A stretch of 64,000 bases of DNA, from the NCBI RefSeq assembly GCF_001625215.2, contig NC_030386.2:39960796-40024795 (forward strand), given 5' to 3'. Both the position numbers and the translations under genes were made by a program. This document shows, piece by piece, positions 8,050-60,577 of the stretch (position 1 is its first letter; every line of letters begins with the position of its first letter). The stretch is from Daucus carota subsp. sativus. Its lineage: Eukaryota > Streptophyta > Magnoliopsida > Apiales > Apiaceae. The notes beneath the pieces were generated by a model. The model had not been told where the DNA came from. It made no database searches and saw only the letters and a list, made by a program, of their open reading frames with translations.

Positions 8050-8279
8050 TGTTTCTGTGGTTGACTGATTGGTGTGTAACGTTTGACTTTATTACAGGAA
8101 TAAAGTTACATAATGGAGTAGGAGTGATGGAGTATTAATAGTGTGAGCTGTCGGAAAATTGATTGAGAACGCGTCATCCAAATCTTGGGATTTTGTATTT
8201 TGTTTTTTTGGAATATGAAAATATGATTTCGATAGGATTTAATATTCCTTCTTTCAATCTTAGGTGTCCCATTCCAAAA

Positions 8280-27138: not shown

Positions 27139-27233
27139 CACACCTCTCAGAATTACGAGACCTGCCGCTCGCTATCGCATTCTAGGGCTCAATCTTTCAT
27201 CTCTCTCATCTTCAATCAAAATCAACTTCAATC

Positions 27234-34929: not shown

Positions 34930-37900
34930 ATGGGTGCAATAAAGCTTGCAATAGGCGATGCAATACTGACTTTCATGTGGGTCTTCCTTGCTTCTACGTT
35001 GGGGACGATAACTTTCATGATCGGCACTTATCTTGGTGTTGAAGGCTTGTTTTTTGATCTGTTTTGTATGGCCTTTCTTGTACTTATTATGTTGTTTCTG
35101 TTTGGATTTCTTGCTGAGGCTTTGGGCGGCGCCAGCTTTAATCCTACTGATTTTGCTGTGTTTTATGCTGCTGGTGTTAGGAATGAGTCCTTGTTCTCTG
35201 CTTCTCTCAGGCTTCCTGCTCAGGTATATGACTCTCTCTCTCTCTCTCCCCCCCCCTCTCTCTCTCTCCCTCCCTCTCCCTCCCCCTCCACCCCCATCCT
35301 CCTCCCTCCCTCTCTCTCCCCCCCCTCTCCCTCCTCCCTCCTCCCTCTCTCTCCTTTTTTATGTATTTTCTTGCTGGGATTTTGATTTAGATCAAGAATG
35401 TTGATTATTTGATACTTGATTGAGGACACTAATTTTATTATGATGTACTATATGATATGTTACTGGTATGATAAGGAAGTTGTGTGTGTTTGTTGCGATG
35501 ATCTAGTGTTTACTAGCTATCTGTTGGGTACTTGGGTCAAGTTTGGAACCAGAATCCAAGTCTTTATGAAGTTAAATACTTAGATCAAGTGTTACTTGCT
35601 ATTTGTTAGTGTTAGGTACTTGGTTCAAGTGTGGAACCGCATCTTCACGACGTTAGGTACTTAGATGAAGTGTTAAACCGGAAACAAAGTCTTTATGATG
35701 ATAAGTGTAAAGCTCTGAGTAAAGATATGACCTTTTACGATGATTAATGCTTTAATGTAATGTAATCTGGTTTAGTTAGATTGAATCTATTACTTAAAGA
35801 CTTGTAAGAGTAAAGTTGTGACCTTTACGATAATTTATATATTGCAAGTTGGTTTAGTTTGGATCTAGTATCATATTAAAGACTAATAAGAGTAAAGTTG
35901 TGACCTTTACAATTATTTATATATCGTAAGTTGGTTTAGTTAGATTGAATCTATTAATCTATGTAAAGCTGGTTAGGTATTTCTTTCAAAAAGATTGGGA
36001 TGCATTCCGGCTTTCAGTATCTTGTAAATGGGGGACCGGTGTCTTTCTACATGGGATATGCCATGTTTAAATATGCTCTGTTGCTCGAGTATCTACATCT
36101 TTATCAACTGGTCCCTTATTTCACTTTTGTAAGTAGTAAGCCAGAAGACTAGCCAGATTATTACTCTCTCACAAACAACTTCAGTAATTAGTACAAAAGC
36201 TATTATCCCTTTTTTTTAAAATAAAGATTCAGGCCTTTTCTCTCATCAACAAAACATACTGGTTGATTGCAGACGCTTAGAACCTCCAGACTCTTGTTAA
36301 CAAGAGAACATGGTGTCCACTAATTTACAATGCCAGGGATACAAAATTATTTATAATTCACATTAAAATGACAAAGTTACCATCTTTATCCTTAAACGTG
36401 TATTTGTTTCTTCGTGTTCTTGTTATTGACTTGAAGTTGCCCGTTTAAGTTGCTTGTAAACATTCACCAAGGCAGCTAATAAGAGTAAAATGATAATTTC
36501 TGATCCTCTCAGGTTGTCTTTCATTATGTCTATGATGACTTCGATATCCTATGAGCTATGAAGTCTGTGGTATTTGTCATTTCTCGTTATATCCCTAATA
36601 TTACATAGTGATTTTGATTGTCAGAACTGAAATTACAACACTACCTGAATTTTAAATTATATATAAAGAAAAGAAACTAATGGATAACTTGATTTCCTTT
36701 ACAGGCAGCCGGAGCTGCTGGCGGCGCATTGGCAATCATGGAGCTGATGCCAGCACAGTATAAGCACATGGTAATGGGGCCTTCTTTGAAAGTTGAACTG
36801 CACACCGGAGCAATTGCTGAGGGGGTGTTGACCTTCGTAATTACCTTTTTCGTACTCTGTATCATCCTCAGGGGTCCTAAAAATGCACTTTTAAAGAATT
36901 GGTTGCTTGCCATGACAACTGTGGTAATAGTTTTCGCCGGTGCCGGTTATACCGGCCCTTCCATGAATCCTGCCATCGTAAGTACCCCATACTATCTTCT
37001 ATTTAAACGTCAATACAGTATCTGGATTTTCTTTACTCGCTTTAGTTGTGTACATTGAGATTTAACGTTTTTAGTGTTTAGTGGTAGCTAATTATGATAG
37101 GTCTGTTTCCAACCTCTAGATAAGAGGGAAATTTTAGTCACTGCATGCTAAATTGCGCCTTTTTCTTTTCTTTTCTGGTTTTTCAGTTCTCTTGGATATC
37201 TCATTCTTACCTTGGTTTTATAAGTACCATTCTGTAGCCTTTACTGAACATTAATTGAGGCCCGCTTCAAATAGACATGGTAAACATCTGGCCACTAGGA
37301 ATTCATGATATAGCCCAAGTTCTCAATACAGCATTGCTTGCTAGTCACGACTCTGACTGTAGTATTTCCTTGAAAATGGGTACCTGCTGCTTTTGTACTT
37401 GCCCTTTAGGTGCAAAAATGAAATATTGGACTTTCTTACGTCTAGATTTGGCATTTGCTTGGATTTTCAAATGCTCCGATTTCTTTCTAAGATGTTTAAG
37501 AATCTGCTAAGTATCCTGTTGAGCAGAAGCCTCTTGATTGAATTAATCTAATGTAACCAATCTCTCTCGCCAAAAAAGTAATTCAACTATTATGTAGAAA
37601 ATGGCTCTGTCAAAAAAGCACCAACTAGATTCTTCAGCCATCATTATTTTGTTGTTCCTCAATCCTCATCGATTTGGTTCTTAAATGTTTTGCTTTTCTT
37701 ACTTTTGCCTTTACGTATTGCCAACTCTAATTTAATTACCACATACTGCGACTACTCACAATTTCCGTTCATGTGTGCAGGCCTTTGGTTGGGCATATGC
37801 AGATAATCGACACAATACATGGGAGCAGTTTTACGTTTACTGGATATGCCCATTTGTTGGGGCCATATTATCAGCTTCGCTTTTTCGTGTTATATTCCCA

Positions 37901-39003: not shown

Positions 39004-39079
39004 CCACTGTCATTAGTCAGTCATTCATCTCGCCTTCCTTCTCCAGACTCCAAAAAAGATCTTGCTTTCTTAGAGAATC

Positions 39080-40134
39080 ATGGGTGTGATAAAATCAGCA
39101 ATCGGTGATGTTATCATAACTTTTATGTGGGTGTTTTGCGCTTCGACTTTAGGACCAATTACTTCCATCATCAAGACTATGTTTGGAGTAGAAGGCTTAA
39201 TTTTCAACCTCTTTATCACAGTCTGTCTTGTATCAGTTCTGTTATTCATTTTCAATTTCATCGCTGAGGCATTGGGTGGCGCGAGCTTTAACCCCACTCT
39301 GTTTGCAGCCTTTTCCGCTGCTGGAATCCATAAAGAGTCCTTGTTCTCTGTTTCTATCCGCCTTCCTGCTCAGGTATATCTATATATTTCAATTTCCGAC
39401 TTATGGTTGAGTCTTCTGGTATCTATTTGCTTGCCTGGATCTTAAATTTGATTGAAAATTTGTACATTTAACACCACTGAGCACAATTATTCTATCAATT
39501 GATAGACAAACATCACTGCACCATGTATTTGATGTTCTTGTATCTTGAATTCTCGGGTAATTTGATTATCTGAATTTGAAATAGTTAATCAGATACAAGA
39601 AAGAAGCATACAATAACTCGTCAAATGTTCTTTTGTAGGCAGCTGGAGCAGCAGGCGGTGCATTGGCAATCAACGAGCTAATGCCAGTGCAGTATAAGCA
39701 CATGCTAAGAGGGCCTTCTTTGAAAGTCGACATGCACAGTGGAGCGATTGCAGAGGGGGTGCTGACCTTTGCAGTGACCTTTCTCGCGCTCTTTATCATC
39801 CTTAGGGGTCCTAAAAGCTCACTTCTGAAGAATTGGTTGCTTGCCGCGTCAACTGTGATGTTAGTTGTTGCAGGTTCTGGTTATACCGGCCCTTCCATGA
39901 ATCCTGTCAATGTGAGTACCACATACTGATATATTATCTTCTGTCGTGATATTTCCTCTTATTTACTGTATTCACATTTGTTTGCAGGCCTTTGGTTGGG
40001 CATATGTTAACAATCGTCACAATACATGGGAGCATCTGTATGTTTACTGGATTTCTCCCTTTGTCGGGACCATTCTATCAGCCTCGCTGTACGGTCTTAT
40101 TTTCCCACCCCCTGTCAAGCAGAAGAGAGCCTGA
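39080..40134 (+). CDS. SIP1: small basic intrinsic protein aquaporin SIP1, copy 2 (237 aa)
   Basis: Exons 39080-39373, 39639-39911 and 39988-40134 match copy 1 exactly in the sizes of the first two (294 and 273 bases) and in phase. The gene is a tandem duplicate with shorter introns (265 and 76 bases). The first motif is FNPTLFA, as in copy 1. The second reads MNPVNAFGWAY, so NPA has become NPV. The second NPA is normally kept in SIPs (NPT-NPA, NPC-NPA or NPL-NPA in Arabidopsis), so pore properties may differ. The body otherwise aligns throughout, including NTWEHLYVYW, and the tail VKQKRA stays basic. There is no sign of decay: frame, splice sites and promoter are intact. Confidence 0.93.
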
Positions 40135-41743
40135 AGCAGCAGACAGTTTCTAGTATTCACCTGTATGCGGTTCTATACTGCTTTTTCAGATACATTTAAG
40201 TACTTTTTCTGTCTTAAAGTTCAATTTGATAGATTATAGACATATGGTCTTATGCTTAAAGTCATTGAACTAGTCCAGCTACCAGCTACCTGCTACTTCA
40301 ACTTTTCATTAGTATTCTTGTTATTTATCTGCACTGGCTAGCTGCTGCTTTTGCTCAAATGCTGCTGATATGATTTTTTTTCTGAATTATGTGTTATCGG
40401 ATTGATCTGAGACGTTTTCCCCTGATCCTGATCGCCAATGCTTGTGTCATTCCAACAGCGTTCTCAGATCACTCTGAGCATTATTAGTCTGCAATTTTTT
40501 CTTAAAACTTAAATACTACTGTTCGACTTCATTTTTGAATTTATATGAATATCCGACTTGATAACAGATTTCCGCCTAGTTCTTTTCTATTTATCTTGAG
40601 TCTGATTCATAATTCTCCAGAATTTAAATTAACAGGCCTGTTTGAGTGGTTTAAGGGAAAATAACAATAGTTAGAACATGAGAGTTGTCAGCTGTTGTAT
40701 TAGGAGTTTAGGACTCTTCTTGAGATGATGGATCACCAAGAATAACGTGACCATGGGAGGAGCTGACACTAGTCTCCTCCAAGAACACTTCTGTCTTCTG
40801 CTCTAGATCCGACACAACAAGTTTTGTCAAAAACGCCAAGTGATGTTATAATAACGACGTTAATCATACCAAATTCTTGACGATCGATTTTGATTATTTT
40901 ATTATTAACCTTTAGACAAAATTGATTTTAATTAAAAAAAAGAAAAAAACTGATTTTATCAAGAAGTCGAATTCAAATATATATTTTCGGTCTGTTTTTA
41001 GTTGTTTATTTTTGACTTTCAATTATCAAATGATATTTTTTGACCAAAAATCAGGGATGATTATTTTATTATATTAAAATACTGAAAATTATATTTTAAA
41101 ATAAAATTATATATACTTTATAGTAAACATATGTTTTAAATATTTTTATAACTACATGATATATATGAAATTCAGTCGATCAATTTAATAATTGAAATTC
41201 AAAGTTGGACAATTAAATAAAATATTTCGTGAATTTGATCGAAAAATTAACTGGGCATTATCGAATTCAACTCACTATATAAAATAAAATAATCTCGGAT
41301 CGGAGTTAAATCAGTTGTTCGGATCGACTAAAATTCGTTAAAATTACGTAAGAGTATTTTCATTCATACATCAACAAACCAACCGCTCGATTCATCTTTC
41401 AACACACCTCTTGGCTCTTCCCTCCATCTCTCTCTAGAGATATCTCTCTAGATCTCTCTCTCTCTCTGTATCACTTCCTTACTGAAATTGACACACACAA
41501 ACACACACCTCTCAGATCACATTCATTCCATTCAAATCACAAACTCAAGCACACACATTCGAGCTCAACACAAAACCAAACCAAATCTAACAATTTCACA
41601 AATTCGAAGCGCTGGAGTCCGTACAAGACACACAGATACCTACCGCCACCGGCAACGGAAAAATCAGGTACCGATCGCCGTCGGCCGCCGAGCTTCTTGA
41701 AGTCCAGTTCCAATTCCCCGCCGATCAACAATCCGACCGGACG
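40135..41743. other. intergenic, SIP1 3' UTR to apyrase promoter and leader
   Basis: 1.6 kb without a gene. The last 350 bases are rich in TCTCT runs (41410-41467) and CACACA, typical of a plant 5' UTR with a pyrimidine tract. They most likely belong to the apyrase transcript. Confidence 0.5.
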
Positions 41744-44700
41744 ATGAAGCAGCGGAATCGCCAGTCCGACTCCTTCTCCGATCAGATTCACCGGTACCGG
41801 AGCATTATTCTCGTGATTGCGGTGCCGCTTTTGTTAATCTCGTTTGTTTTGTTTGTTATGACCACTCGGTCGGATACGATTGACGATTCGGTGCTTTCGC
41901 ATCGGAAATTTGCGTCTGGAGGTGGCGGGAGTGATAAGAAGTTTGCGGTTATTTTTGATGCCGGTAGTTCGGGGAGTAGAGTTCATGTTTTTTGTTTTGA
42001 TAGGAATTTGGATCTGGTGCCTATTGGAAATGATCTCGAGCTTTTTGAACAGGTAAGATGCTTGATCTCATTGAATGATAGATAGAGTTGAATATGTTTA
42101 TGACAAAGTTTAATTGCTAAATGCATTCTAAGACAATTGATAAAATGGAATTTGGTATAAATTGAGCGTTTGATGTGTATCAGTATGTGGATGGATATAT
42201 ATTTTGCTTTAATATACTGGAATTGAGTAATTAGCTTAGTTATTATGTGATACACTTGAGATTTTGAATTTTTGTAATTGGGTATATAATGTGTAACTAT
42301 GCTAGTACTTATGTGTTTGGTTGGGGAGAATGGAGTGGAGTGGAATATAAGGAGTGAAATAAAGGAAAACAATAGAGGTAGGAGAGAAGATTTGGAAAAA
42401 TAATGAGTGAGCGCAGTGTTTTTATGATGGGATTGAGAAGAAAATGGGTAAGATAGAGAATGGAGCATTTTTTTCGCAATTTGGGGTTTTCACCTCTAGT
42501 TTAGGTTTTATGAATTGGAAAGGGGATTTTTAATCTTTTGCCCATAATATAGAGTATATCTCATTCCTTTCCTTCCAAATTCAATCATGCCAACCAAACA
42601 CAACATTAATATGTTACAATGTGATATCCACTTTAATTTTTCCAGATACAAAATTTTCGATTTTAGTTGTGGTTGGTATGCATTACAAAAAAGGAAAAGT
42701 TAATTGATAAGTCTCTGAATTATTTCGGTTTTATTGTCCAGGTCCCTGAACAAAAGATTCCACATTTTGGGTCCTCTAGCGTTTCAAAATTTTTAGTTTA
42801 AGTTCAACGGGAGGGACCTAAATATTTTTTTTAATAAAGATTTATATCCATTGTGGAAATGATAAATGTATCAAGAATTCTCTGTCTACGATGGAATCCT
42901 AATTTCTCAGATTATTTATAATATATTGTTTCCTTGCTTAGGACTCTTTCTATCTCTCTCGCTTTAAACAAAAGCTCTGAAGATATTTTTGTTATTTGGA
43001 TGATCATTTAGTTATCATATTATTGCTCACTGTCTTATTCTTTGGTTTACCTCATTTTACCTTTCCTGTAGTTGAAACCAGGTTTGAGTGCATTTGCAAA
43101 GGATCCTAAGGCCGCAGCAAATTCTTTACAGCCCCTTCTTGAGAAAGCTGAGGCTGTGGTTCCACAAGAGATTCGTCCCAAGACTGTTGTCAGAGTCGGG
43201 GTGAGTAATGTGTATGGCAATACTTAATAGTAATCATGTGTACTAGTATCTGATTACTACTTGTTGCTTGATACAACTTTGTCAATCTAATATGTTTTCC
43301 AATCGTCACTCAGGCAACTGCAGGTCTTAGGCAATTAGAAGGTGATGCATCAGACAGAATTTTGCAATCAGTAAGTCTGTTATCTATATTTTGTATTAAG
43401 TGGTTCTGATATCGTACTCTATGACGTTCTATAGCCCTGGCTTCATGCTTATTATTGCTTATATTCTTCTGTTAAAGGTTAGAGATTACCTCCAGTATAA
43501 CAGTAAGCTCAAATCAAAGTCTGATTCAGTGACTGTTCTTGACGGAACTCAGGAGGGTGCTTATCAGTGGGTATGTTTGCTTAATTTTAAAATTTGGGCT
43601 ATTGAATGATAAGCTATGCATATTTGTCAAGTTTATCTAATATAAAAAGGGAAAATGATAATTCCTTTGCTAGAATATGATCGATTGGTCTGAACTAAAC
43701 ATAGCATGTATGGGAAATTGGAGGAAAGTTTAGTGTAAATAATGGCTTGAGTCTTCGGAATTACTCATGTTAGCAACATGCTATATGAAGCCAAAGGTCG
43801 GGGATGTAACTTAAGTTTCTTTTTATCTTTAACGCCGAGTTTTTTTTTTTTTGATATTTCTGATAGTTGTTAGTACATTTAATAATTGTGTATAATGGTT
43901 TAAAAAGTTAGGAGGCTACTCTTTAAATCCTTGTAATGTTTCTTGTCTGCTTTTTTAGTCCGTGCATATATTATATGATTATTAAGAGTTCTTATTTTAT
44001 TGTGTAGGTCACTATAAACTATTTACTAGGGCGTTTAGGGAAAACATATGCAGATACTGTTGGAGTAGTTGATCTTGGTGGTGGATCTGTACAAATGGCG
44101 TATGCCATTTCAGAAAATGATGCTGCCAAGGCTCCAAAAGTAACAGAAGGGCAAGACTCTTATGTGAAGGAAATGTATCTCAAGGGAACCAAATACTACC
44201 TTTATGTTCACAGGTTCATCTCTTCTTCTATGATATATAGACCTTGTATTTTTGTTAATGTAGTGTTTTTTTTATCGTGGATGGTTATTTCTTTAAAGTC
44301 TAGTTTACACTATATACTATTTTTCAAGTCATTAGTTTGAATATCAAAAATGCATGAACTATATTTTCAGCTGCCTTCTACGAAATTCTAAGAATACTTC
44401 CCTTGGTATGGTTCCCGAATTTTGTCTACAGTTACTTGCGCTATGGGTTATTGGCAGCTAGAGCTGAGATTTTGCAAATTACTGGCGACTCTGGAAGCCC
44501 ATGCATTGTACCTGACTTTTCAGGTATGTTTGAATTCATAGTTTCCATTAAAGTTAATGTTCTCTCTTGAAAAGTAGTATGGTAATTTCTTTGGCTTATA
44601 CTCTTATGCAAAATTGAAGTCTTATGAACTCATTATTTGTTAAGTGTTTTATAATGCACATGAGACTGGATGAGCATTAACCACCTTTACCTGGGTTCAA

Positions 44701-46680: not shown

Positions 46681-48489
46681 ATGTGGAGTGTTAGAAGAAA
46701 ATTTGCCCTATGTTTACTCTCTGTTGCATCTGGTAACCACCTTAGTTCAGCAAATAGTGTTATAAAGCCTATTAGGTTATTGTCCCATTGTTGTTATATG
46801 GTTAGTGAATCTGAGTTGAGGGCTTCTGTCCGTATTTTGAAATCGACTAGTTTTCCGATTTTGGTTTCTCAATTTTCGTCCGTTACTGAAAGAAATCAAG
46901 ATGGTTATGCTCTAGAGAAGTGTGATAATGGGGTTAGCGGCAATGATGAAAATAGGAGTGAGGATGATGAGGATTATGATGAAAGCAAGGGTGGGCAGTT
47001 GGGCTTGAAGGATGAGGATTTTAATAGGAATGTAGGTGTTATTATGGATGTTTTGTTAGCCCCACGAAGCAGTTGTTCGGTTGTGAAGTATAAGCTTGAG
47101 CAGTGTAGTGTGGTTGTTTCGACGGATTTGGTTGTGGAGGTTCTTTCTCGTGTACGTAATGATTGGGAAGTGGCGTATACTTTCTTTATGTGGGCTGGTA
47201 GGCAGTCAGGTTATGCACATTCTCTACGTGCGTACCATTCTATGATTTCTATTTTAGGGAAAATGAGAAGATTCGATACAGCTTGGGGGTTGATTGAGGA
47301 GATGAAAGGTGGGAGAACTGGACCCTCTCTAGTGACTCCACATACGTTGTTGATATTGATTAGAAGGTATTGTGCTGTGCATGATGTTGGAAAAGCTATT
47401 AATACTTTTTATGCTCATAAGCGGTTTAAATTTGAGATAGGAATGGAGGAATTCCAAAATCTTTTATCTGCTCTGTGTCGGTATAAGAATGTCAAAGATG
47501 CTGAACACTTGCTCTTTTGCAACAAAGATGTTTTTCGGCTCAATACCAAGAGTTTTAATATAATTCTTAATGGATGGTGTAACATTATGGGGAATTCAAA
47601 GGAAGCAAAGAGAATTTGGTGGGAGATGCATGAGAGAAAGATTTTTAAAGACGTTGTATCTTATGCTAGCATGATGTCATGCTATTCGAAAGTTGGTAGA
47701 CTCAATGATGTTCTCAGGCTCTTTAACCAGATGAAAGCGCTGGAAATTGTTCCAGATAGAAAAGTTTACAATGCTGTCATTCACGCTCTTGCAAAAGGCA
47801 AGCTTGTGAAGGAAGCTTGCAATCTATTGAAAACAATGGAAGAAGAAGGTATTGCTCCAAATGTTATTACTTATAACTCACTTATTATGCCTCTATGCAA
47901 AGCCCGTAAATTAGATGAAGCGCGGGAGGTTTTTGATGAGATGTTACAAAGGGGCCTTGCACCTACCATTCGAACTTACCATGCTTTCTTTCGCAATTTA
48001 AGGACAGCTGAAGATGTGTTTGAGCTCTTAGAAAACATGAACAAGGAAGGGTGCCGTCCCGGTCATGACACTTTTATAATGTTAATCAGAAAGTTTTGCC
48101 GTTGGCGCCAACTTGACAATGTCTACAAGCTGTGGAATCAGATGAGTGATTATGGACTTGATCCTGATCGCAGTTCATATATTGTTCTAATCCATGGGCT
48201 GTTTTTAAATGGAATGTTGGAGGAATCATACAAATATTATCAAGAGATGAAGGAAAAACATTTAGTGCCAGAGCCAAAGATAGATGAGATGCTTCAAACT
48301 TGGATAGCTGGTAAACAAAATGCAGACAAGCCCGCAGTTGAGTCAAAACATGATCAGGTAAGTCGTAGTCAGACAACAAAGGATGCAAAAGCTCCCTCAG
48401 AGAAGGTTGAACGGAATGTAGATTTTCGCCGACAACCTGAAACTAAAAAAGTTGTGAGGGAAAGAGGATATTCATTTTGGGATGATTAG
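46681..48489 (+). CDS. P-class pentatricopeptide repeat protein, probably mitochondrial (602 aa)
   Basis: A single uninterrupted exon from ATG 46681, the first ATG of the open frame. PPR proteins bind organelle RNA through 35-residue helical repeats. About ten repeats span residues 180-550, such as VVSYASMMSCYSKVGRLNDV, RKVYNAVIHALAKGKLVKEA, VITYNSLIMPLCKARKLDEA and RSSYIVLIHGLFLNGMLEES. Repeats are of plain P type and there is no E, DYW or SMR tail. The N-terminus MWSVRRKFALCLLSV is basic and hydrophobic, fitting mitochondrial import. An acidic region (residues 80-110, EDDEDYDES) precedes the repeats. The charged tail is Lys/Arg-rich and ends RGYSFWDD. Target RNA unknown. Confidence 0.93.
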   Translation: MWSVRRKFALCLLSVASGNHLSSANSVIKPIRLLSHCCYMVSESELRASVRILKSTSFPILVSQFSSVTERNQDGYALEKCDNGVSGNDENRSEDDEDYDESKGGQLGLKDEDFNRNVGVIMDVLLAPRSSCSVVKYKLEQCSVVVSTDLVVEVLSRVRNDWEVAYTFFMWAGRQSGYAHSLRAYHSMISILGKMRRFDTAWGLIEEMKGGRTGPSLVTPHTLLILIRRYCAVHDVGKAINTFYAHKRFKFEIGMEEFQNLLSALCRYKNVKDAEHLLFCNKDVFRLNTKSFNIILNGWCNIMGNSKEAKRIWWEMHERKIFKDVVSYASMMSCYSKVGRLNDVLRLFNQMKALEIVPDRKVYNAVIHALAKGKLVKEACNLLKTMEEEGIAPNVITYNSLIMPLCKARKLDEAREVFDEMLQRGLAPTIRTYHAFFRNLRTAEDVFELLENMNKEGCRPGHDTFIMLIRKFCRWRQLDNVYKLWNQMSDYGLDPDRSSYIVLIHGLFLNGMLEESYKYYQEMKEKHLVPEPKIDEMLQTWIAGKQNADKPAVESKHDQVSRSQTTKDAKAPSEKVERNVDFRRQPETKKVVRERGYSFWDD

Positions 48490-49441
48490 ATCAAAGTTGA
48501 TAACTGATGCTCTCCTATGTTGCTATATGTTCTACATAGGACTCCATGATTACGTATGAGCGAAGCACAATAAAGGTTGGTTTGACTCCATGTTACTGTT
48601 TTGTCTTTGCAAATTTTTGCTATCAAGTGAGGAAAAGGTTTCCTTAGCACATAGCATTTCCTTCATAATCCCCCCCCCCACACACACACACACACACCCA
48701 AATTAGAAACCAGATTTTATACCACTATATCAACATGAAATGCATGAAGTCCACATAGCAAGTGTTTCGGTATATTTTTTATTGATGGCATCAAGTTAAT
48801 CTGGTTTTGCATTTTTGTTCCCCTAGTGCTTGATCTCCTGCTAAACTTGTGATGATCCTCAGAGTGCCAGTAGCCTCTTCATCAAAATTCATCCACTTAA
48901 TATATAATATATCTTTAATTGAGGAGTTTTTATTCGATTCTTGCAGATATAAATAAGTTATATGGGTAAAAATGTAATTGGTATGTTTAATAGTATTTCT
49001 ACCCTTGTAGCTTGAAAATGTTCTCACCATACATTTCCAGATCCAAGTGTCCAACCATGCTGAAGAAAATTCTGAGATAAATAAGTAGATACAAAAAGAT
49101 TAAATTTTTTATTCTGTAGTGATTTGAGATTTCTTTATATATATTATTATTTTTTTTTACATAAACTTGTATACACACTAAACTTTATATTTTTTATATA
49201 AACAAGAAATTATAAAAGAAATCTATTTACAAGTATGTTTCTTGAAATGCCTGCAAACAAATCTTATTAAATGGAATGGACCGGAAGGACAGCATATCAA
49301 TGGTCTCTCTTCATTGAGATTCTAATCTTACATCTGTCTTTGTCTTTACCTCTGCATGTAATATCCTAGTACTAATATATTTACACACACGTACCAGACA
49401 TCTCAATATCTCCTTTCAGCTGCCGGAAAATTTAATCTACA
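48490..49441. other. intergenic, PPR 3' UTR to triple-EUL promoter
   Basis: 0.95 kb, AT-rich. It holds a (C)n(CA)n microsatellite at 48670-48698 and no gene. Confidence 0.5.
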
Positions 49442-52097
49442 ATGCTTGTTTACGATCAAGTAGATCACCCTCACCAGAACAACAATGCTCCTACGCAGCC
49501 CAATGCCCGTCCCGAAACCGAGCCATATTCTTCACCTCATGATCAGACTCTTCAGTGTTTGGATTATTTGAGCTGCATGCCATCTTTTAGGATTTATACA
49601 AAGGCTGAGCCTAGTTTCTCCCTTACTATCCGTGATGGCAAAGTCATTCTTGCCCAGGTTGACCCGTCTGATCCGTTTCAGGTAATGCCATGTTTCGTAA
49701 CATTGATTTTGTTTTTTGATGAATTATGGGCACTTGTATTTTCATTTTATATTGTATTAGTTGTGCTTGTAAATAAATTTGAGTAGTTTTAGAAATTTAT
49801 TGGCCTGAGGACGAAGATGAATATATGAGCTTTAATGAATAGGGGTACATTTTTAACGTAACAGTTTGAGTCGTCGTTATTTCCTGATTGTTTCTTTGTG
49901 TAATTTCTAATTGTTAATTATTATATATATGCGGTGTTTGTAAATATAGCAATGGGTGAAAGATGAGAGACATGGCACGACGGTTAAAGATGAAGAGGGA
50001 TTCTCTAGCTTTGCTCTGGTAAATAAAGCTAGTGGTCAGGCTATAAAGTATTCTGTTGAAGCCACTCATCCGGTATGTGTATCTATGATTCATTTTCAAT
50101 TCATAAATCTAATCTATTTGCTTGGAATATTTCAACAATGGAGTGATGGAATTTCATGTCCAATACTAGAGATAAGTTTGAATGTCTCAATTTATAGAGA
50201 TAGTTAGCTTTCCATGATGTTCCGTAAAACACGATATAAAAGATAGTCACAAATTGGTGGTAGCTATAATTTGTGGCTTGTTTGGTCAGGACTCTGTTAG
50301 ATAATTAAAAGCTAATATGAAATCATTTACATGTTTTCTTCATGTGATAAATCGTCAAACACTTTGCCAGTTTCCTACGGATATATAAGGCCTAACAGAA
50401 TGATGGAAGGAAATATAAGGCCTAACAGAATGATGGAACAAGCTTTTTGCTTTTTTGGGCGATTTCACTAATTCTCTCACTGGTTTTCGAAGCTATCTCT
50501 GTCCCTCCTATTCCTCTAGTCTTAGGTCCAACTCCATTGATAGAGCCTGATGCTTAAAATTGGTTTAGGAGTAGCCATGACCTGAGTGCCTCTCTCTATT
50601 TTTTTAGGTTCAGTCTGCTTTATTTTTTAATTGCCGGTACTGATCTTAGTTTCTGCCCGATATTGTACAAATCTCCCCGCACATAATTTTGATTACACTG
50701 CGATTCTTGCCATTTTGTCCTCAAATTGTGGATTAGAAGCTTACTATAACAATGTTGAATATTAATTTGTGCTTGCTTCGCAGCAAAGATGGTAATACAG
50801 TAAATACATTAGGAAATTACAAATATGGCTGTGTTTAGAGGGTCCCTGCTCTGAAGTTCAGCTTTTACCAGTCTTACTCGGTCCGGATCTGTATAAATAA
50901 TGATTATCCTTGTTTTTTGTTATGGCGGAATCTATTTGATCTCTGTTTTCTCATTGCTAATATACAGTAAATTATCCTCTACAGGTGCAGCTCATCCCTT
51001 ATGTTCCTGACGTACTTGATGAATCCGTCCTTTGGACTCTTGGTGCGGACTCAGGTGATGGTTATAGAGCAATGAGGATGGTCAATAACATTCGCCTCAA
51101 TATAGATGCATTTCTCAATAGTGATGGACGCGTTCAGGATGGTACAATTATTGGCCTGTGGGAGTGGCTGCAAGGTGAAAATCAACAATGGAAGATCATA
51201 CCACATCAGTATGAGCCTTCTACAATTGATAATCAGACACTTCACGTTTGGGATTATTTGGGACGGATGCCATCTGTTAGGGTTTACACAAAGGCTGAGA
51301 CTAATTGTTCCCTTGCTATTCGTCATGGTAAGGTCATTCTTGCCCAGGCTGACCCGTCTGACCCGTCACAGGTATTTTCCTGTTTCCTAGTATGTTTTCC
51401 CAAAATTAGTTAGCTCATCGACTTAAATCCTATTCTCATTAAATGCATTTTACTAATAGAAAGTATAGGCCCTTCTTATGTTTTGCGAATTTAAGTAATT
51501 TGTACTACTACTAATACTACCAACTGCTATCAGACTAGTCTTCTGGACGAACTAGCATAGTAGAGTACTAGAGTTTCTATATTTTTGTTCTACTAGGACT
51601 ATAAGTCACACTATACTATACTTCACTGAACCTTCTTACACTGGTTCAATTTTTAGTAAGGCAATTAAGATGGATAGATCATCCAAATTCGGGTCCATAA
51701 GCAGTGACAATTGCCCTATGAACACTCGCTTTCGCTGTGGCTCCAGTGGTTCCCTTAATGTAGGACTGCCCCTGAGTCCCTGGCTCATTCTTTAATAGGC
51801 ACAAGGTCTGAGCCTCGGGCTCCTTCCACTGCTTGGGAGCTTACGGTTTCATGTTCTATTTTCACTCCCCAATGTTGGTTCATTTCACCCTCCCCTCGCG
51901 GTGCTTCCTCCGATTAAATTATATTTTATTATTTGTTTTTGCCAGTAAAAACCAGCATGAGAAATATAGTACGATAGTTTGTTATATTATCCTTATACTC
52001 TATATAAAAAGGAACCTGAATTTGTTGCTTATATGCTTATTCTAGTGACATGTTTAACAACTCTATATGATAGATCAAATTATTAACTAAATATATA

Positions 52098-52157
<60 letters not shown>

Positions 52158-55100
52158 TTAGACGTAAATTGAATAGTTATATGTAGAAGTTTTAATGAAA
52201 GAAATAACTTAATTTAAAGGTTCAAAATTGGGCCAAGATTTTTTTTGCTATATTTTAATATGCAACCACGCAGTGTTGAAATTTAAAATAAATGATTTTA
52301 GTTTTAAGCTATTTTTTTTGTTCATGGTGATTTGTATTGTGAATATCTATGAATTATAAGCAACATCAAAATTGTATACATTTGAAGTATATCTTAAACA
52401 TCTTTGAATATTAAAATAATTAATATGTATTGTTTGATTCCTATCTTTACTTAAATAAAAAGCTATAAAATTAAATCTCATACTTTTCATATTTATTAAA
52501 AAAATTATACTCTCTCCCTCCCACTCACCCCCCCCCCCCCCCCCCCCACACACACAACACACACACACACACTTGCACTTGCACTTCAATAACACACACT
52601 TTGAAGCTGTTATGGAACCATTGATTCAGTTGATATATTGGATTCTAACAAATGATGACACTGATAAATAGCTCTTTACAATTTTTATACCTTACTGTTT
52701 TAGAAAATTTTGCTCTGTAATTTTTTTTTAATATACTGATAATTTCCGCGGTATTTGTGATTCTAGCACTGGGTGAAAGATGAGAAATATAGCACAGAGT
52801 TTAAAGATAAACATGGCTTTCCTAGCTTTGCACTGGTTAACAAAGCTACTCTTCAGGGAATGAAGCATTCAGTTGAAGCCTGTCATCCAGTATGCTTATC
52901 TTTTTATATATGTTCTATTGATTTGTTTCTTTCTGTAGTGTGGAATTTATATACGGAGTAATTGTTTTTCATGTCCAATAACAGAGATAAATTTCGATGT
53001 CGCATTTCATAGAGAGCTAAAATTTAATATGTGACTATTATTAGTAGTTATAATTTGTGGTTAGTGGTCAGTGCTCATTACTTAGATGAAAGGAAACATA
53101 TAGTCATTTATATGTTGTCCTTAAATTGTGAATTAGTAGCGTACTTTAACGATGCCGAATATTTATTTGTGTTTGCTTCGTGGATGTCCAGAAAATGATA
53201 TATGAATACATTAGGAACTCACAAATATATCCGTGTTTTTATGAGTTTCTGCTATGAAGTTAAGCGGTCATCAGTCTAGACCTGTATACTTTGTGATCCT
53301 TGTTTTTTTTCTTTGTTTTCTGCTGAAACTATATGATTTATGTTTCTGGATGCTCTTCAATTGCTTATATGCAGCATAATATCTTTTACAGGTGCAGCTT
53401 ATCCCTTATGTTCCAGGCATACTTGATGAATCTGTCCTTTGGACCCTCAGCGCGGACTTGGGTGATGGTTATAGTGCAATAAGGATGGCCAGTAACACTC
53501 GCCTCAGTGTAGATGCATTTAAGAACAGTAAAGGACGCATTCATGATGGGACTATCATTGGGCTGTGGGAGTGGTTGAAAGGTGATAATCAACGATGGAA
53601 GATTGTACCACATCAGTCTGTGCCTACTTCAATTTATGATCATACACGTCAGATTTGGGGTTGTTTGAGCCGGATGCCATCTGTTAGGGTTTGCACAAAG
53701 GCTGATACAAATTTCTCACTTGCTGTCCGTCATGGTAAGGTCATTCTTGCACGGGCTGACCCATCCGACCTGTTTCAGGTATTTCCTTGTATCCTAATAT
53801 ATTCTGTAATCATTCTGAAAAATTGAGTGAATACCAAAAAGGCCTATAGTAGTATAGTAGTATAGTTTGTTATATTAGCCTATATATATAATTAGGGCCT
53901 TGAGTTTGTTGATTAATTTGCCACTTTATATACAAGTCTAATAATATAGATATAACAGGTAAGGTTTAAGTTTTAACTAATATTCATGTCCCTTAATATA
54001 ATTTGACCTAGACTTAATTAGTAAAAAAGACACTTAGACTTATTTAAAGTCTTTGTAATTTATTCTTATCTACTAACCTGATTAGAAAAAATAAGCTGAT
54101 GTGAGAGGTGAAGCAACAGAATTGAGCAGCCAATATTTGTTTTATATATATTTGAAAAACAGATTGTCAGACTTTCATAGTAATTTTATAGTTTGAGATT
54201 TTTTTGTATTGTTCATGGTATTTAAAATATTAAAGTTATGAAGTCTAAATCATATGATAATTAAGGGTGTTTGAAACTTTAAAATTATATTATCATTGTG
54301 GTGTTTGTGATTACAGCACTGGGTGAAAGATGAGAAATATAGCACAGAGGTTAAAGATCAATATGGCTTCCCTAGCTTTTCACTTGTTAATAAAGCTACT
54401 GGTCAGGCTATGAAGCATTCTGTCGGAGCCACTCATCCGGTATGTTTATACTATTGATTTAATATATTTCTTCTGTGAAATATGTACATGATGAAATGTT
54501 GGATATTCATGTCTAATAGAAGTAACCATGAGTTGATCGCTTTTCCTCTCTGTCTTGCTCCCCCTGTGTTATACAAGTTCTGACTTTGCCTCGTAGAAAA
54601 ATCTCTTCCGGCTAAGTTATACTAAGTTACTGGTTCTAACAGAGCTTCAATAGGTCAATTATATATTTTTCTACCGATGCTGAAACTGATTGGGGTTAAA
54701 GAAATTCAGTTTCTGTATACTCAATTATCTGTTGCTGCACATCATCACAGCTAAATAGCTAATTACAAATAACAAATTTGATTCACTCTGGAAAATCGAT
54801 ATGTGCTTTATTGGTTCTTATTGCTGATACCGATTTTCAGTTGTCTGATATAAAATGGATCCCCCTGCATTAAACGTTAGTTCCACTGCTATTCTTTTTG
54901 GTAGCACCATTTTTTCCTCAAAATTGTGAATAGCTTTACCGGTGTTGAATATTCAACTGTGCTTGTTAGCAGCTCTCAAGATGGTATTATATACACCTTA
55001 TGAAATCACAATAATATCCGAGGGTTTTTTACAGCTTTGGCTATGAAGTTCAGTGTTTACCACAATCTCAGTCTAGACCTGTATAATAAATGATCCTTAT

Positions 55101-55419
55101 ATCCTGTTTTCTTCTTGTCGGGTATAGTCTTTTGATTTTAGTTTCTCTACATCGTCTACATTTACTAATATGCAGCTAAAATTATCTTCCACAGGTGCAG
55201 CTTATTTCCTATGTTCCTGAGCCACTTGACAAGTCTGTTCTTTGGACTCTGAGCGCGGACTTAGGTGATGGTTACAGAGCAATGAGGATAGTCAATAACA
55301 CTCGCCTGAACGTAGATGCATTTTACAGCAGTGATGGTCGCGTTGATGATGGTACTATCATCGGCCTGTGGGAATGGGTGCATGGTGAAAATCAGCAATG
55401 GAAGATTTTATCCTACTAA
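49442..55419 (+). CDS. three-domain EUL (Euonymus-type) lectin, 535 aa
   Basis: Seven phase-0 exons: 49442-49681, 49950-50072, 50985-51371, 52767-52889, 53392-53778, 54317-54439, 55195-55419 (240, 123, 387, 123, 387, 123 and 225 bases). EUL domains are cytosolic/nuclear carbohydrate-binding folds of the ricin-B type, stress-linked in Arabidopsis EULS3. Three domains follow each other: about residues 46-194, 216-364 and 386-535. Each runs MPSxRVxTKA, (Q/H)WVKDE, VNKAxxQ, VQLIxYVP, LDxSVLWTL, GTIIGLWEW and G(E/D)NQ(Q/R)WKI. Every domain is cut by two introns at the same places, and each 387-base exon fuses the C-terminus of one domain to the N-terminus of the next through a short linker (HQYEPSTIDNQTLHVWDYL). 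The N-terminal 45 residues are polar. No signal peptide or membrane segment. A single-domain relative follows at 56887. Confidence 0.92.
50383..50442. repeat. 30-bp tandem duplication in triple-EUL intron 2
   Basis: ATATAAGGCCTAACAGAATG begins at 50383 and again at 50413; both copies continue ATGGAA. Non-coding. Confidence 0.85.
52101..52149. repeat. (TA)n microsatellite in triple-EUL intron 3
   Basis: About 24 uninterrupted TA units, followed by a T-run. Confidence 0.98.
52528..52572. repeat. (C)n(CA)n microsatellite in triple-EUL intron 3
   Basis: About 20 C followed by CA repeats. It resembles the microsatellite at 48670-48698. It creates a spurious Cys/Gly-rich frame on the minus strand. 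Confidence 0.95.
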
Positions 55420-56495
55420 ATATAAGTCTCGAACATATTAAAGATTCTTGAAATAGCTTGCTCACTGCTTATCTGAGAGTCCTTACTATGCTACTATGAA
55501 TATTTTGTAAATAATATGAGTCACTGATTTTTGTTTAAGCCCGGGGTACATTATCTTGATTAAACCTTTTTCTTAACATGCTTAATGTTTTTCAAATAAT
55601 TAGTGTTTTTTTACTGGAATGAGGCACGCTAGCCGGCCCAAATTACAAATGGCCCAATTACTGATGAACGGGTCTCCGGCCCAGGAGTTAAATGAAAACG
55701 AATGAAATATGTTCTAGACATGAAGAAAATCAATCAGTCTGGGATTTAAGAATAGAATGACAAGGCATTTTGAAACGCATGAGATTCACGTGGAGATGCA
55801 AAAGAATCACAGAAAGAACCAAGATTGCCTATCTTTATTAGCGTAGATAGTACGCGAATAAAGAGTGAAAATGATTTGAGTGGCTTGCATAGTTCGAATA
55901 TTGAAACTCTTTCTAATTTGAAAATTTTACGTTTAAAGAGGTGTTTTGAATTGAAATTTTGGAATTTTCAAAATAATGATGATTTATAAATTTAAATTGA
56001 CATTATATTGATTGATGTACTACTGGTATTTAAAAGAATATTTTCTTAAAGTTCGAATTTTAGTTTTCTGAAAAATTCGATATAATATTTAAACATATAA
56101 AAATATGTGAGAAAATTCATAAATCCAACAATTTCAAAATATTAACGATTCAATTTTCACTTTTCAGTACATAATTTAATTTGATTTTACATTAAATAAA
56201 AGCTTAATCCATGCACTCCCATCGTTAACAAAAAAACCCTACAAAGACACTTCTTCCCTTTTCACATTTTCTTAAACGAAACGTACATATTCATAAAAAA
56301 ACAAGTTATATTTCTTGTTGTCAATTCTATATAACCCTGATAAACTACATTAGTTTATATATATGTTTTAACCGAATATTAAAATTATATTTAAAATATA
56401 TTTTTGAAAAATTATTCAAAAAAGATTTTTAGAAAACGAAGATAACAAATATTTTGGATCATGTTATTTTTGGAAGAAACATTATAGGTGGGGTA

Positions 56496-56886: not shown

Positions 56887-59290
56887 ATGGATTACCCGTA
56901 CGGCCACCCACTCCACAACCGCCACGACAACACCTACCCACCCCCACCCAACACCTACCCGCCCCCACCCCAAGTCCACCACACTTCCCACCAGCCCGGA
57001 TCCGACCCGTTTCACTCTTCCCACCACCCCGGATCCGACCCGTTTCACTCCTCCCACCGACCCGGATCCGACCCGTACCCGCCACCGCCCCAAGCCCACT
57101 ACGGCGGAGGGGACGCCTACCCACCGTACCCGCCGCCGCAAGTGGAAGTTCATGTTTATCCGCCTGGTCCGGGTCGGAATGACCCGTATTCTTCCGGGTC
57201 GAATGTGCACCATGTGGCTCATGAGAGTAGGCCACATGGGTATGGGCCGAGTGCGGTGCCGAATCAGGCCCATGGTGTGATGGATTATCTGAGTAGGAAG
57301 CCCACTGTGAGGGTGTACACTAAGGCGGACACTAATCACTCTCTTACTATCCACGATGGGAAGGTCACTCTTGCCCGATCCGACCCGAATGATCCGTGTC
57401 AGGTATGCCCTTTTAAAAATGATGTTTTGATGGAATTTTGGTTGATGATATTAATTTGTATTTGTTGTTCAAAAAATTGATTAGTTATATAATTGATATT
57501 TGTTTCATATTTTGTGATTGATTGTTATATAGACATCAATGTTTTGATTTAATATGAATTGTTATAAAATGAATAATTTGGTTGCGATTTGGTTTGTATT
57601 AATGTAGATGATAATAATTTGCTTAAGAATTACACTATGATATTAGTATCTGTTTTATTTTATTTTGGAAAATTGATTAATTGTTTGACTTATATTAAAC
57701 TGGTTGTTTTATATTTGTGATACATTCATAAACATACATCAGTATTTTGATTAGATATGGATTGTTATAGGATATATGAATATGATTATGCTACCGTGCG
57801 GTTTATTTTAATGTGTAATTTTATTGTTTGTGTTTCGATATTTCATTTATTTATTATTCTTCAAAAGATGGGTTTATTGTATTGATATTGACAGTATAGA
57901 AGTATAGATATATTGGTCAAGTGAGTTATTTTTCCGGTATCAAAATTAAAGAATTCTTGGGTTTCAAGGGTATTTATGTATAGAGCTTTAATTGTATGTA
58001 GTAGGTACTTGAATTTTGTTGGGATGAGGGCCCCCTTATGTGAGCTGCACGGTTAATGTTTTGTTTGTGCTGTGCTATAATTTCTTACTTATAATGTTTT
58101 TTTCTTGATGTGTTCGTGAATGTAGCACTGGGTGAAAGATGAGAAATATAGCACAAAGGTGAAAGATGAACAGGGATTTCCTTGTTTTTCTCTGGTTAAT
58201 AAAGCTACTGGTCAGGCATTGAAGCATTCTGTTGGAGCTCATCATCCTGTATGTTTATTCAATTATTCGTGTTCTGTTTATACTTTTTTATATTACGTAT
58301 TGGAGTATTGGTAGAAGTTTCATGCCCATTTGAAGAGGTAATTTTAACTTTTAAGGGTATTTAGATTTCTAGATGGATTCTGTAGTATTCCCTAAACAAA
58401 GATGGATTCTTTAATGTTTACTAAGATTAAAAAGCGTCCTTTGAATGGAAACTGATGAGTCATTAAATATATCTGTTATGTTATTAGTGCTTTGATAGTC
58501 TTGTATAGAAATAGGAGGCGGAACTGAATGATAGAATCGTCATCTTGTCTTTCGAATATTCATATTGTTCTTCTGCACATTTATCAAGCAACCTCTGTTC
58601 TTTCTCTTTTCGTAGTCAGTAGTCCTAGGTTACTTGTGGGCGTCTAATGCTGAATTTGGGGTCAGATTAAGTGTAATCTGATTGTTGCTCTGTGCTCCCT
58701 TCCCTTTTTGTTCTCAAACTTTTGACTTCGTCCCTAAGCAAAATATATTTCCATTGATTTACTGGTTTTGTGGTTCCTACAGAGCTAAGGTCAGAGATTA
58801 TTGTTTTCTGATTCCCATCACTATAGTTCAACACATCATCAGAGCTAATTGCAAGCAACACTCATTTATTCTGAATGTTGTCTCTGTCTTCTTTAAATTC
58901 TTTTTTGACAATATCTGTTATGAAGTTCAATGTTCACCCGTCTATACTCTCTGTTTAGACCCCCATATTTGTTGATCCTTGTGTACTTGTCTTTAATTTT
59001 TCGATAATTTTTTTACCGTGGATGCTGGGCAATCACTAACATAGTAAAAAAATTAATATCTACAGGTGCAGCTTATCCCGTATGTTCCAGATAAACTTGA
59101 CGAATCTATCCTTTGGACTCTCAGCCTAGACACTGGTGAGGGTTATAGAACAATCAGGATGGTCAATAACATCCGCCTTAATGTTGATGCATTCAAGGAT
59201 CACAACAATAGCGTTCATGACGGTACTACTATTGGCCTGTGGGAGTGGATTAAAGGGGAAAATCAGCGATGGAAGATCGTGCCCTATTAA
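56887..59290 (+). CDS. EULS3: single-domain EUL lectin with proline-rich N-terminus, EULS3-like (287 aa)
   Basis: Three phase-0 exons, 56887-57402, 58126-58248 and 59066-59290, encode 287 residues. The N-terminal 130 residues are rich in Pro, His, Tyr and Gly (YPPPPNTYPPPPQ) and hold three 11-residue repeats, (H)xSHxPGSDPF, at residues 32-64. The EUL domain covers about 137-287: KPTVRVYTKA, HWVKDEKYSTKVKDEQGFP, SLVNKATGQALKHSVGA, VQLIPYVPDKLDESILWTL, GTTIGLWEW and GENQRWKIVPY. This is the architecture of Arabidopsis EULS3, a nucleo-cytoplasmic lectin tied to ABA and salt responses and stomatal closure. Exon 2 (123 bases) and exon 3 (225 bases) have exactly the sizes seen in the neighbouring triple-domain gene. 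No signal peptide. A clear TATA box lies upstream. Confidence 0.95.
56980..57078 (+). repeat. 33-bp coding tandem repeat in the EULS3-like gene
   Basis: Three in-frame 33-base units encode HTSHQPGSDPF, HSSHHPGSDPF and HSSHRPGSDPY. Units share CCCGGATCCGACCCGT and keep the frame, so the number of repeats may vary between alleles. Confidence 0.9.
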
Positions 59291-60577
59291 TCGTAAGTCT
59301 CAACACATTAAATGTTTTCATAAATATGTTTGGTAAATGTCTTACGAGAGTCCAGTGCATGTAAAATTTCTAGGCTATTGTTTGTTGAAATTCTAGGATT
59401 CTGGGTCCCAGTCAATATACTATTAGTTGGAAGTAGTGATGCCTTACTAGATATACCACTAATGTTATTAATACTTAAATAAAATTTTACAGTTGGTAAA
59501 ACATGAATTTTTTTAAATTACAAGTAAAATTTTAATCAGTAAGGTTGTGATTGATTAAGAATCCATCACTGTGTCAATATATTAAGTCAATTGCACAGTG
59601 TTCTGATATTCTATATCGAGTTCAAATTACATCAAGACTTCCTGACCCGACAAACTATCTATGTTTAAGCTATCTTAATAAAGATGAACGTATATTTGGC
59701 ATTTAGGTTGTTCGCCATTTGTGATTGTCTTGATTTCAAGGTTTGTTGAGACAGAAGTGGGAGTAGATATCTTGAGATGGAGTTTAAGAGAGTAGTATAG
59801 CAGGTTATTATCTTCTGAGTCCCAGGTGTTTGGTGTAGTCAGTTGACTCTATTTTGTTGCTCTTTTAAAATTGAGGATACAGTTACTTAAGTATGAACAA
59901 TTTGAAGTGGAACAATATTGTATTTTGCATTGGTCACCAGTTCCAGTTTATTCATACTGGCCGACTGGTCGGTGGTTTTGTATGGTTTTCGCAGCACTAG
60001 GTGTGAATGGGCTTTCATAAGTTATCTTAATATCACTTGCGTCAATGCTCCCTCTTGGGTTTCAGGAAGTCCATTGGGATTTCCGTCTAAGTATCTATCT
60101 TATCTTGTTTATTGATTAAACTCTCCCTTCTCATCACGCATAAATTGATGGTTCATGCAGGATATCGCTGGAGCTGTCTTGAAGATTTGTGTACTATGCG
60201 TGTATTGGGAGGGTATTTGATATATGCATTACCTTTGTGTCTTTATTGTGATTAGAATATTGTGTTATATGGTGTGGCAATGACTTCTCTCTTGCTTCTT
60301 GTTGAACTAACTTATGCTATGTGTATGGGATGAGTTATACCCAGCTTGGCAGTTTAAAAATAATGTGATTATGAACGAGTATTATATATCGTCTCTTTCG
60401 TTACTGTATGGGGTGGTTTATATTTCCTATCTATGAAGAGAAGTTGAGGCCATTTGTTTAATTGTAGCACGTGAAGTGTATATTGACCGATGAGCACTGA
60501 TCCTTCCTTTCCTATAAGTTAAACTATTAGACGGAAGCAAGAAATCTAGTCTTTTAGCTGCTGAGAATGTGGTATTG

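What the first reader, a model, noticed from the sequence alone, without database searches (positions are those of the whole stretch)
49442..55419. A dicot lectin gene with three EUL domains in one chain
Three complete EUL domains are encoded in one uninterrupted frame of 535 codons across seven phase-0 exons. Known EUL proteins, as far as I recall, are single-domain (EULS, all land plants) or two-domain (EULD, mainly monocots). A three-domain form in a eudicot would be a new architecture, giving a multivalent nucleo-cytoplasmic lectin that could cross-link glycans. Each domain keeps the LWEW and NQxWKI core, so none looks decayed.
Basis: partly seen in the sequence, partly recalled or inferred. 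Interest (0 to 1): 0.85.

Follow-up and report, generated by a model that had tools for sequence, protein, structure and literature searches.

The report
Plant lectin gene with three domains
A flowering-plant gene encodes three copies of a sugar-binding domain (the EUL domain) in one protein, where published surveys of this family report only one or two, and it probably arose by repeated internal duplication of a one-domain gene like its neighbour.

Summary
Seven phase-0 exons at 49442-55419 encode one 535-aa frame with three EUL domains of 151 aa and two 19-aa linkers. The predicted sugar-binding residues are intact in all three; domain 1 departs at two other conserved sites. Domain joins lie inside exons 3 and 5, so these are not three intact separate genes. 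A single-domain EULS3-like gene follows at 56887-59290. The linkers resemble its pre-domain stretch, which suggests fusion of tandem copies and then a second unit duplication. Domain 2 looks like a hybrid (permutation p 0.02-0.04). dN/dS between domains is 0.33-0.44 with no stop codon: purifying selection, though relaxed.

The surveys seen describe one- and two-domain EULs, and only one-domain EULs in dicots; seven library searches showed no three-domain EUL. Plant protein databases could not be searched, so unreported relatives may exist. Transcript, glycan-binding and species evidence is lacking. This is a new variant of a known kind. The boldest prediction is that skipping whole units would give in-frame one-, two- and three-domain forms.

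The parts
49442..49681 (+). Exon 1: 43-aa N-terminal extension and start of EUL domain 1
   Evidence: Frame, GT donor. In-frame TAA just upstream (49433-49435; the open frame starts at 49436).
49950..50072 (+). Exon 2: middle of EUL domain 1 (123 nt)
   Evidence: AG/GT borders, phase 0
50985..51371 (+). Exon 3 (387 nt): end of EUL domain 1, linker of 19 aa, start of EUL domain 2, no stop between
52767..52889 (+). Exon 4: middle of EUL domain 2 (123 nt)
53392..53778 (+). Exon 5 (387 nt): end of EUL domain 2, linker of 19 aa, start of EUL domain 3
54317..54439 (+). Exon 6: middle of EUL domain 3 (123 nt)
55195..55419 (+). Exon 7: end of EUL domain 3 and stop codon TAA
49571..51203 (+). EUL domain 1 (aa 44-194), introns included
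   Evidence: D119, W139, N144, Q145 present, H71 is Y; Ser of D-xxx-S is Gly
51261..53610 (+). EUL domain 2 (aa 214-364), introns included; probable hybrid of a domain-3-like left and a domain-1-like right part
53668..55413 (+). EUL domain 3 (aa 384-534), introns included
51204..51260 (+). Linker 1-2 (19 aa); resembles the stretch just before the EUL domain of the downstream gene
53611..53667 (+). Linker 2-3 (19 aa); same form of junction as linker 1-2
56887..59290 (+). Neighbouring single-domain EULS3-like gene (exons 56887-57402, 58126-58248, 59066-59290; 287 aa with a long Pro/His-rich N-terminus); the only other EUL gene that tblastn found in the window

Best explanation
One functional plant gene encodes a soluble lectin with three EUL (beta-trefoil) domains in one chain. 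It arose beside a single-domain EULS3-like gene. First, two tandem EULS3-like copies were fused: the end of one coding region was joined to the stretch just before the EUL domain of the next, with loss of the stop and of the second copy's start. Second, the fused repeat unit was duplicated once more, probably by unequal crossing-over, which left domain 2 as a hybrid. Each domain keeps the predicted sugar-binding residues and the N-terminus does not look like a signal peptide, so the likely product is a nucleo-cytoplasmic lectin with three tethered binding sites. It would bind by avidity or bridge glycosylated partners, in the stress-linked role known for EULS3 proteins. Shown: gene structure, intact frame, domain residues, matching junctions, selection signal. 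Inferred: fusion route, fold, localisation, trivalent binding, stress role.
For: Exact seven-exon phase-0 model, 535 aa. Domain joins lie inside exons 3 and 5, so separate genes would lack stops or starts. The residues predicted to bind sugar in ArathEULS3 (Asp, Trp, Asn, Gln; PMC4030858) are present in 3 of 3 domains. PF14200 E 1.5e-16 with 4 stretches, against 2 stretches in the single-domain neighbour. Linker 1-2 lies in a stretch that aligns with the sequence before the neighbour's EUL domain; both linkers carry the same form of junction. Introns B match between units (E down to 2.5e-25). dS between domains 0.39-0.48, to the neighbour 0.67-0.92; dN/dS between domains 0.33-0.44, below 1 by Fisher p 5e-4 to 2e-6. 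For the parts inferred to have split after fusion, dN/dS is 0.43 (p 0.015) and 0.36 (p 0.009). With neutral change of 0.2 per site (about half the dS between domains), 0 of 3000 simulated copies stayed free of stops; the gene has none.
Against: No transcript data. dN/dS between domains (0.33-0.44) is higher than to the neighbour (0.23-0.33), and the left part of domain 1 against domain 3 is not clearly below 1 (0.54, p 0.057). Domain 1 has lost two conserved residues. Hybrid evidence is modest: permutation p 0.019 on exons and 0.040 with introns; intron B sites do not favour domain 1 (58 against 69), and with them the right side is even, 82 against 82; intron A of unit 1 has no detectable match to the other units. 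ACGTG cores upstream are not enriched (1 found, 1.8 expected). No structure was predicted. PF14008 also passes its cut-off at aa 478-513; taken as chance resemblance.
Confidence: 0.77

Rival explanations
1. It is a decaying or unexpressed copy: the frame is still open but the gene makes no useful protein.
For: Weaker constraint than to the neighbour (dN/dS 0.33-0.44 against 0.23-0.33); one partial comparison not clearly below 1 (domain 1 against 3, left part, 0.54, p 0.057); domain 1 has lost two conserved residues. For a comparable soybean tandem copy, GlymaEULS3C, no EST was found in 2009 (PMC2788552); a 2015 survey says that EST data confirm expression of the three soybean genes (PMC6272470).
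Against: All exons multiples of three, no internal stop, all splice sites GT-AG; dN/dS significantly below 1 for all three whole-domain pairs; of 3000 neutral simulations 141, 5 and 0 stayed open at 0.05, 0.1 and 0.2 substitutions per site.
Confidence: 0.13
2. Shorter proteins are made from this region, by internal promoters, early polyadenylation or exon skipping, and the full three-domain chain is rare or absent.
For: All introns are phase 0 and each domain is cut at the same two places, so skipping whole units stays in frame: 8 of 8 paths from exon 1 to exon 7 that alternate odd and even exons give 1-, 2- or 3-domain proteins, judged by length and motif counts. Introns of 268-1395 nt leave room for signals.
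Against: Domains 2 and 3 have no start region and domains 1 and 2 have no stop of their own; no direct evidence for alternative forms.
Confidence: 0.1
3. It is an ancient multi-domain EUL related to the two-domain EULD lineage of monocots, mosses and conifers rather than a local new fusion.
For: Similar layout to that described for OsEULD1A: introns only inside the EUL domains at shared places, and a short linker (rice linkers 18-76 aa) (PMC5449364; PMC2788552).
Against: The three domains are closer to each other and to the adjacent EULS3-like gene than I would expect for such an old split (dS below 1), and the linker resembles the neighbour's pre-domain stretch. I had no monocot EULD sequences to place in a tree.
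Confidence: 0.07
4. Assembly artefact: one EUL gene written three times.
For: Tandem repeats are a known source of assembly error (general knowledge).
Against: Units differ by 27-30% of amino acids and have different intron lengths with only partly alignable introns.
Confidence: 0.01

Closest known systems
EULS3, single-domain Euonymus-related lectins (ArathEULS3 type)
   Same: EUL domain of 151 aa, conserved residues and predicted sugar site, two intron positions inside each domain; the adjacent gene 56887-59290 is of this kind by its single domain, long N-terminus and intron positions (PMC2788552)
   Different: Three domains instead of one; N-terminal extension of 43 aa instead of a long one; no intron in the stop codon, which PMC2788552 describes as invariable in dicot EULS3 genes and which the neighbour lacks too
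EULD, two-domain EULs (OsEULD1A, OsEULD1B, OsEULD2 and others)
   Same: Tandem EUL domains, a short linker (19 aa here; 18-76 aa in rice), introns in the reading frame only inside EUL domains, short N-terminal extension
   Different: Three domains; the published EULDs are in monocots, conifers, moss and spikemoss (Table 1 of PMC2788552), with none in the dicots surveyed; probably a separate origin from a local EULS3-like gene (inferred)
GlymaEULS3C, tandem copy beside GlymaEULS3B in soybean
   Same: Tandem EUL copy with a shorter N-terminus next to a canonical EULS3 (PMC2788552)
   Different: Single-domain; no intragenic repetition reported in the passages seen
Multi-domain jacalin-related lectins
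   Same: Several lectin domains of one kind in a chain: jacalin(1-4) architectures are listed, and three jacalin motifs in Parkia platycephala seed (passages of PMC5485960 and PMC6272470)
   Different: A different lectin family; works-like comparison only

Membership tests
EUL (Euonymus-related lectin) family | Conserved residues of the EUL domain listed in PMC2788552: QxWxxDxxxS, LxNK, H71, L81, D90, W95, D100, G102, R109, W141, NQxW | tested here: met
   All present in domains 2, 3 and the neighbour. Domain 1 has all but two: H71 is Tyr and the Ser of DxxxS is Gly. List. W, N, Q and W at the end lie 2 residues earlier here because of a length difference.
EUL (Euonymus-related lectin) family | Predicted sugar-binding site Asp/Trp/Asn/Gln | tested here: met
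   3 of 3 domains (site from PMC4030858)
EUL (Euonymus-related lectin) family | Ricin-B-like beta-trefoil profile (PF14200), no other annotated domain | tested here: met
   PF14200 E 1.5e-16, 61 bits against cut-off 25.6. One other family passes its cut-off, PF14008 at aa 478-513 inside domain 3, read as chance. phmmer against PDB: best E 0.011, an HA-33 chain, not significant alone. Fold itself not predicted.
EUL (Euonymus-related lectin) family | Two introns inside each domain at conserved places | tested here: met
   Each of three domains and the neighbour is split at the same two places, phase 0
EUL (Euonymus-related lectin) family | Intron inside the stop codon (called invariable in dicot EULS3 genes and typical of most EUL genes, PMC2788552) | tested here: not met
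   Stop codons of both window genes are contiguous TAA. In the neighbour a GTAAGT follows 2 nt after the stop; in the three-domain gene the same place reads ATAAGT.
EUL (Euonymus-related lectin) family | No signal peptide (cytoplasm and nucleus; a few EULs have one) | tested here: inconclusive
   Only a hydropathy check: the highest 11-residue mean among windows starting at residues 1-50 is 0.85, at residue 39; nothing signal-like at the start
EUL (Euonymus-related lectin) family | Glycan binding | not testable with these tools
   needs recombinant protein and a glycan array
EULD (two-domain) subfamily | Exactly two tandem EUL domains | tested here: not met
   Three domains
EULS3 subfamily | One EUL domain behind a long unrelated N-terminus | tested here: not met
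   Three domains and a 43-aa extension; met by the neighbour gene

The most novel reading that the evidence does not exclude
A lectin of adjustable valency: because all six introns are phase 0 and each unit is cut at the same two places, the cell could make one-, two- and three-domain forms, including mixed domains, by skipping whole 510-nt units. Eight of eight such paths give 195-, 365- or 535-aa proteins with whole domains by length and motif count. A flowering plant would thus have re-invented, apart from the monocot EULD lineage, a multivalent EUL from its own EULS3-like gene and put its number of binding sites under splicing control.
Probability: 0.12. Interest if true: 0.72.

Novelty: new variant of a known kind. 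Interest (0 to 1): 0.5.

Why it matters
The surveys seen state that EULs have one or two domains, that dicots have only one, and that it is unclear why eudicots did not keep the two-domain form (PMC6362431, passages). A three-domain EUL beside a single-domain relative, if in a dicot, would show that dicots can build tandem EULs independently. It would also give a natural set (one and three domains, same plant, same locus) in which to ask what extra binding sites do for a nucleo-cytoplasmic lectin. The predicted unit-skipping isoforms make valency testable in one gene.

Tried and rejected
Three separate intact genes: rejected, since the joins lie inside exons 3 and 5 without stop or start. Assembly error: rejected on divergence and intron differences. 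Remnants of the neighbour's long N-terminus upstream of exon 1: none convincing (best E 2.9). Shared 5' or 3' flanks of the two genes: none by blastn at E 0.01, although the 20-30 nt after the two stop codons look alike by eye. ACGTG cores upstream: not enriched. Relatives in viral and prokaryote contigs: 21 and 46 pattern matches, none confirmed, as expected for a land-plant family. Peptide strings of the domain in papers: 0 papers. Species of origin: not found; no genome is held. PDB relatives by sequence: nothing below E 0.01.

Literature: seven searches. The phrase 'three EUL domains' occurred in none of the 23 papers; 'three EUL' occurred in two (PMC5449364, PMC6272470), where the passages seen speak of three genes or three homologues. 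Some listings were cut: 40 of 48 papers shown, 17 of 18, 40 of 124. Of 15 papers opened I saw passages; of three of them also named sections (PMC4030858 section 12; PMC2788552 section 10 and part 1 of 2 of section 18; PMC11966446 section 20). No paper was read whole. Passage displays stop at 12, for example 12 of 30 places and 12 of 17. Papers that name dicot 'R40' or 'ricin B-like' lectins (sunflower, dandelion, Cannabis) say nothing on domain number in the passages seen, and the chia paper reports two EUL genes without domain numbers there.

Full report
OBSERVATION. The gene model is exact. Seven exons between 49442 and 55419, all multiples of three and all with GT-AG phase-0 introns, encode 535 amino acids and a stop. 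A tblastn with the domain-2 protein finds nine pieces of this gene with E 2e-13 to 4e-47 (three are the query itself), three pieces of a second EUL gene downstream, and one chance match (E 0.70) elsewhere. An ungapped repeat search independently gives three families of four copies. With the family's 151-aa domain length (PMC5449364, passage), the domains are aa 44-194, 214-364 and 384-534. They are joined by two linkers of 19 aa and preceded by 43 aa; one residue follows the last domain. All six introns contain in-frame stops.

IS IT ONE GENE? The end of domain 1 and the start of domain 2 lie in the same 387-nt exon, and so do the end of domain 2 and the start of domain 3. Domains 1 and 2 therefore have no stop, and domains 2 and 3 have no start region of their own. 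This excludes three intact separate genes. Internal promoters or early polyadenylation are not excluded. No transcript evidence was available.

ARE THE DOMAINS INTACT? Mostly. Of the conserved residues listed in PMC2788552, domains 2 and 3 and the neighbour keep all. Domain 1 lacks two: His71 is Tyr and the Ser of the D-xxx-S motif is Gly (alignment). The four residues predicted to bind sugar in ArathEULS3 (PMC4030858, passage and section 12) are present in 3 of 3. PF14200 matches with E 1.5e-16 and four stretches; one unrelated profile (PF14008) also passes its cut-off at aa 478-513, which I read as chance. Identity between domains is 70-73%, and to the neighbour 65-70%.

SELECTION. dN/dS between domain pairs is 0.33-0.44, and to the neighbour 0.23-0.33 (Nei-Gojobori counts in a script of mine). 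All three within-gene pairs are below 1 by Fisher tests on rounded counts (p 5e-4, 2e-6, 3e-5). Some of this divergence may predate the fusion. For the two comparisons that the fusion model dates after it (domain 2 against 3 on the left part, domain 1 against 2 on the right part), dN/dS is 0.43 (p 0.015) and 0.36 (p 0.009). Among the other partial comparisons, the left part of domain 1 against domain 3 is not clearly below 1 (0.54, p 0.057). Under neutral change of 0.05, 0.1 and 0.2 substitutions per site, 141, 5 and 0 of 3000 simulated copies stay free of stops; 0.2 is about half the dS between domains. So the gene seems to have been kept, under weaker constraint than its neighbour's.

ORIGIN. 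The adjacent gene (56887-57402, 58126-58248, 59066-59290; 287 aa) is a single-domain EUL with a long Pro/His-rich N-terminus, like EULS3, though without the stop-codon intron described for dicot EULS3 genes. The stretch of the three-domain protein that begins with linker 1-2 aligns with the neighbour from just before its EUL domain (61% over 56 aa). Both junctions of the three-domain gene have the same form: a domain end running to 'CC', then a CACAT-like pre-domain sequence. The simplest history is one fusion of two tandem EULS3-like copies, then a second duplication of the fused unit by unequal crossing-over. That step predicts a middle domain whose left part resembles domain 3 and whose right part resembles domain 1. 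In exons, sites where domain 2 agrees with only one of the others are 33 (domain 3) against 18 (domain 1) on the left, and 13 against 24 on the right (p 0.006 with a cut chosen after a first look). Adding intron B makes the right side even, 82 against 82 (p 0.046). A permutation test that searches for the best cut gives p 0.019 on exons and 0.040 with introns. Introns B have local matches between units, but intron B sites do not favour domain 1 (58 against 69), and intron A of unit 1 matches nothing. I treat the hybrid as suggestive.

WHAT IT MAY DO. EUL domains bind glycans promiscuously (galactosylated, high-mannose and blood-group-B-related). The reviews describe EULs as nucleo-cytoplasmic and stress-linked, and both domains of OsEULD1A bind galactose-containing glycans (passages of PMC4030858 and PMC4131498). 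With three intact predicted sites and no signal-like start, the likeliest product is a trivalent nucleo-cytoplasmic lectin. Fold, binding and localisation are inferred. An untested corollary is that all eight paths from exon 1 to exon 7 that alternate odd and even exons stay in frame and give 1-, 2- or 3-domain proteins of 195, 365 or 535 aa.

KNOWN OR NEW. Fouquaert et al. 2009 define only S (one-domain) and D (two-domain) types. In the dicot genomes they screened they report only single-domain S3 genes, and their table also lists one-domain S0 types in Euonymus and Plantago. De Schutter et al. [quoted passage not shown] A 2019 survey (PMC6362431) says that dicots exclusively harbour single EUL domain architectures. 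[quoted passage not shown] Seven searches of the paper library showed no three-domain EUL in the listings and passages seen, with the limits given under Tried and rejected. Plant sequence databases could not be searched, so an unreported relative may already be deposited. Repeated lectin domains are known in other plant lectin families such as jacalins. Hence: a new variant of a known kind.

SPECIES. Not determined; no whole genome is held for the window. GC is 35%. An EUL-type gene (annotated ricin B-like lectin R40G3) and a SIP1-2 aquaporin lie about 125 kb apart in Cannabis; the table lists only defence-linked genes (PMC11966446, section 20). A major-intrinsic-protein gene (Pfam MIP on two joined frames; SIP by my own recognition) lies at about 34.9-37.1 kb here. 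This fits a dicot but does not prove it.

Noticed in passing
56887-59290: Single-domain EULS3-like gene directly downstream on the same strand. Such a tandem EUL pair was reported in 2009 only for soybean among dicots (PMC2788552).
   Followed up: yes
59288-59300 and 55417-55432: Both EUL genes have contiguous TAA stops; 2 nt later the neighbour reads GTAAGT and the three-domain gene ATAAGT, perhaps a shifted remnant of the family's usual stop-codon intron.
   Followed up: partly
34879-37058 and 39074-39445: Two neighbouring aquaporin-like genes, perhaps a tandem pair. The first matches Pfam MIP when two open frames are joined; one frame of each alone gave no Pfam match. SIP type is by my recognition.
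   Followed up: partly
5271-8088 (-), 8840-10150 (-), 11475-13002 (+), 27186-28535 (+), 41591-44340 (+), 46681-48489 (+): Other genes: metacaspase-like (Peptidase_C14, two frames), peroxidase, protein kinase, CCCH zinc finger, GDA1/CD39 family, PPR protein (Pfam on one frame each); the outer borders are by my recognition of neighbouring frames.
   Followed up: partly
2275-3869 (+): Open frames resembling a non-LTR retrotransposon reverse transcriptase and RNase H by my recognition; the one frame scanned gave no Pfam match.
   Followed up: no
55263-55370 (aa 478-513 of the three-domain protein, exon 7): Pfam Metallophos_C (PF14008) passes its cut-off (29.1 against 23 bits) inside EUL domain 3; probably chance resemblance.
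   Followed up: no
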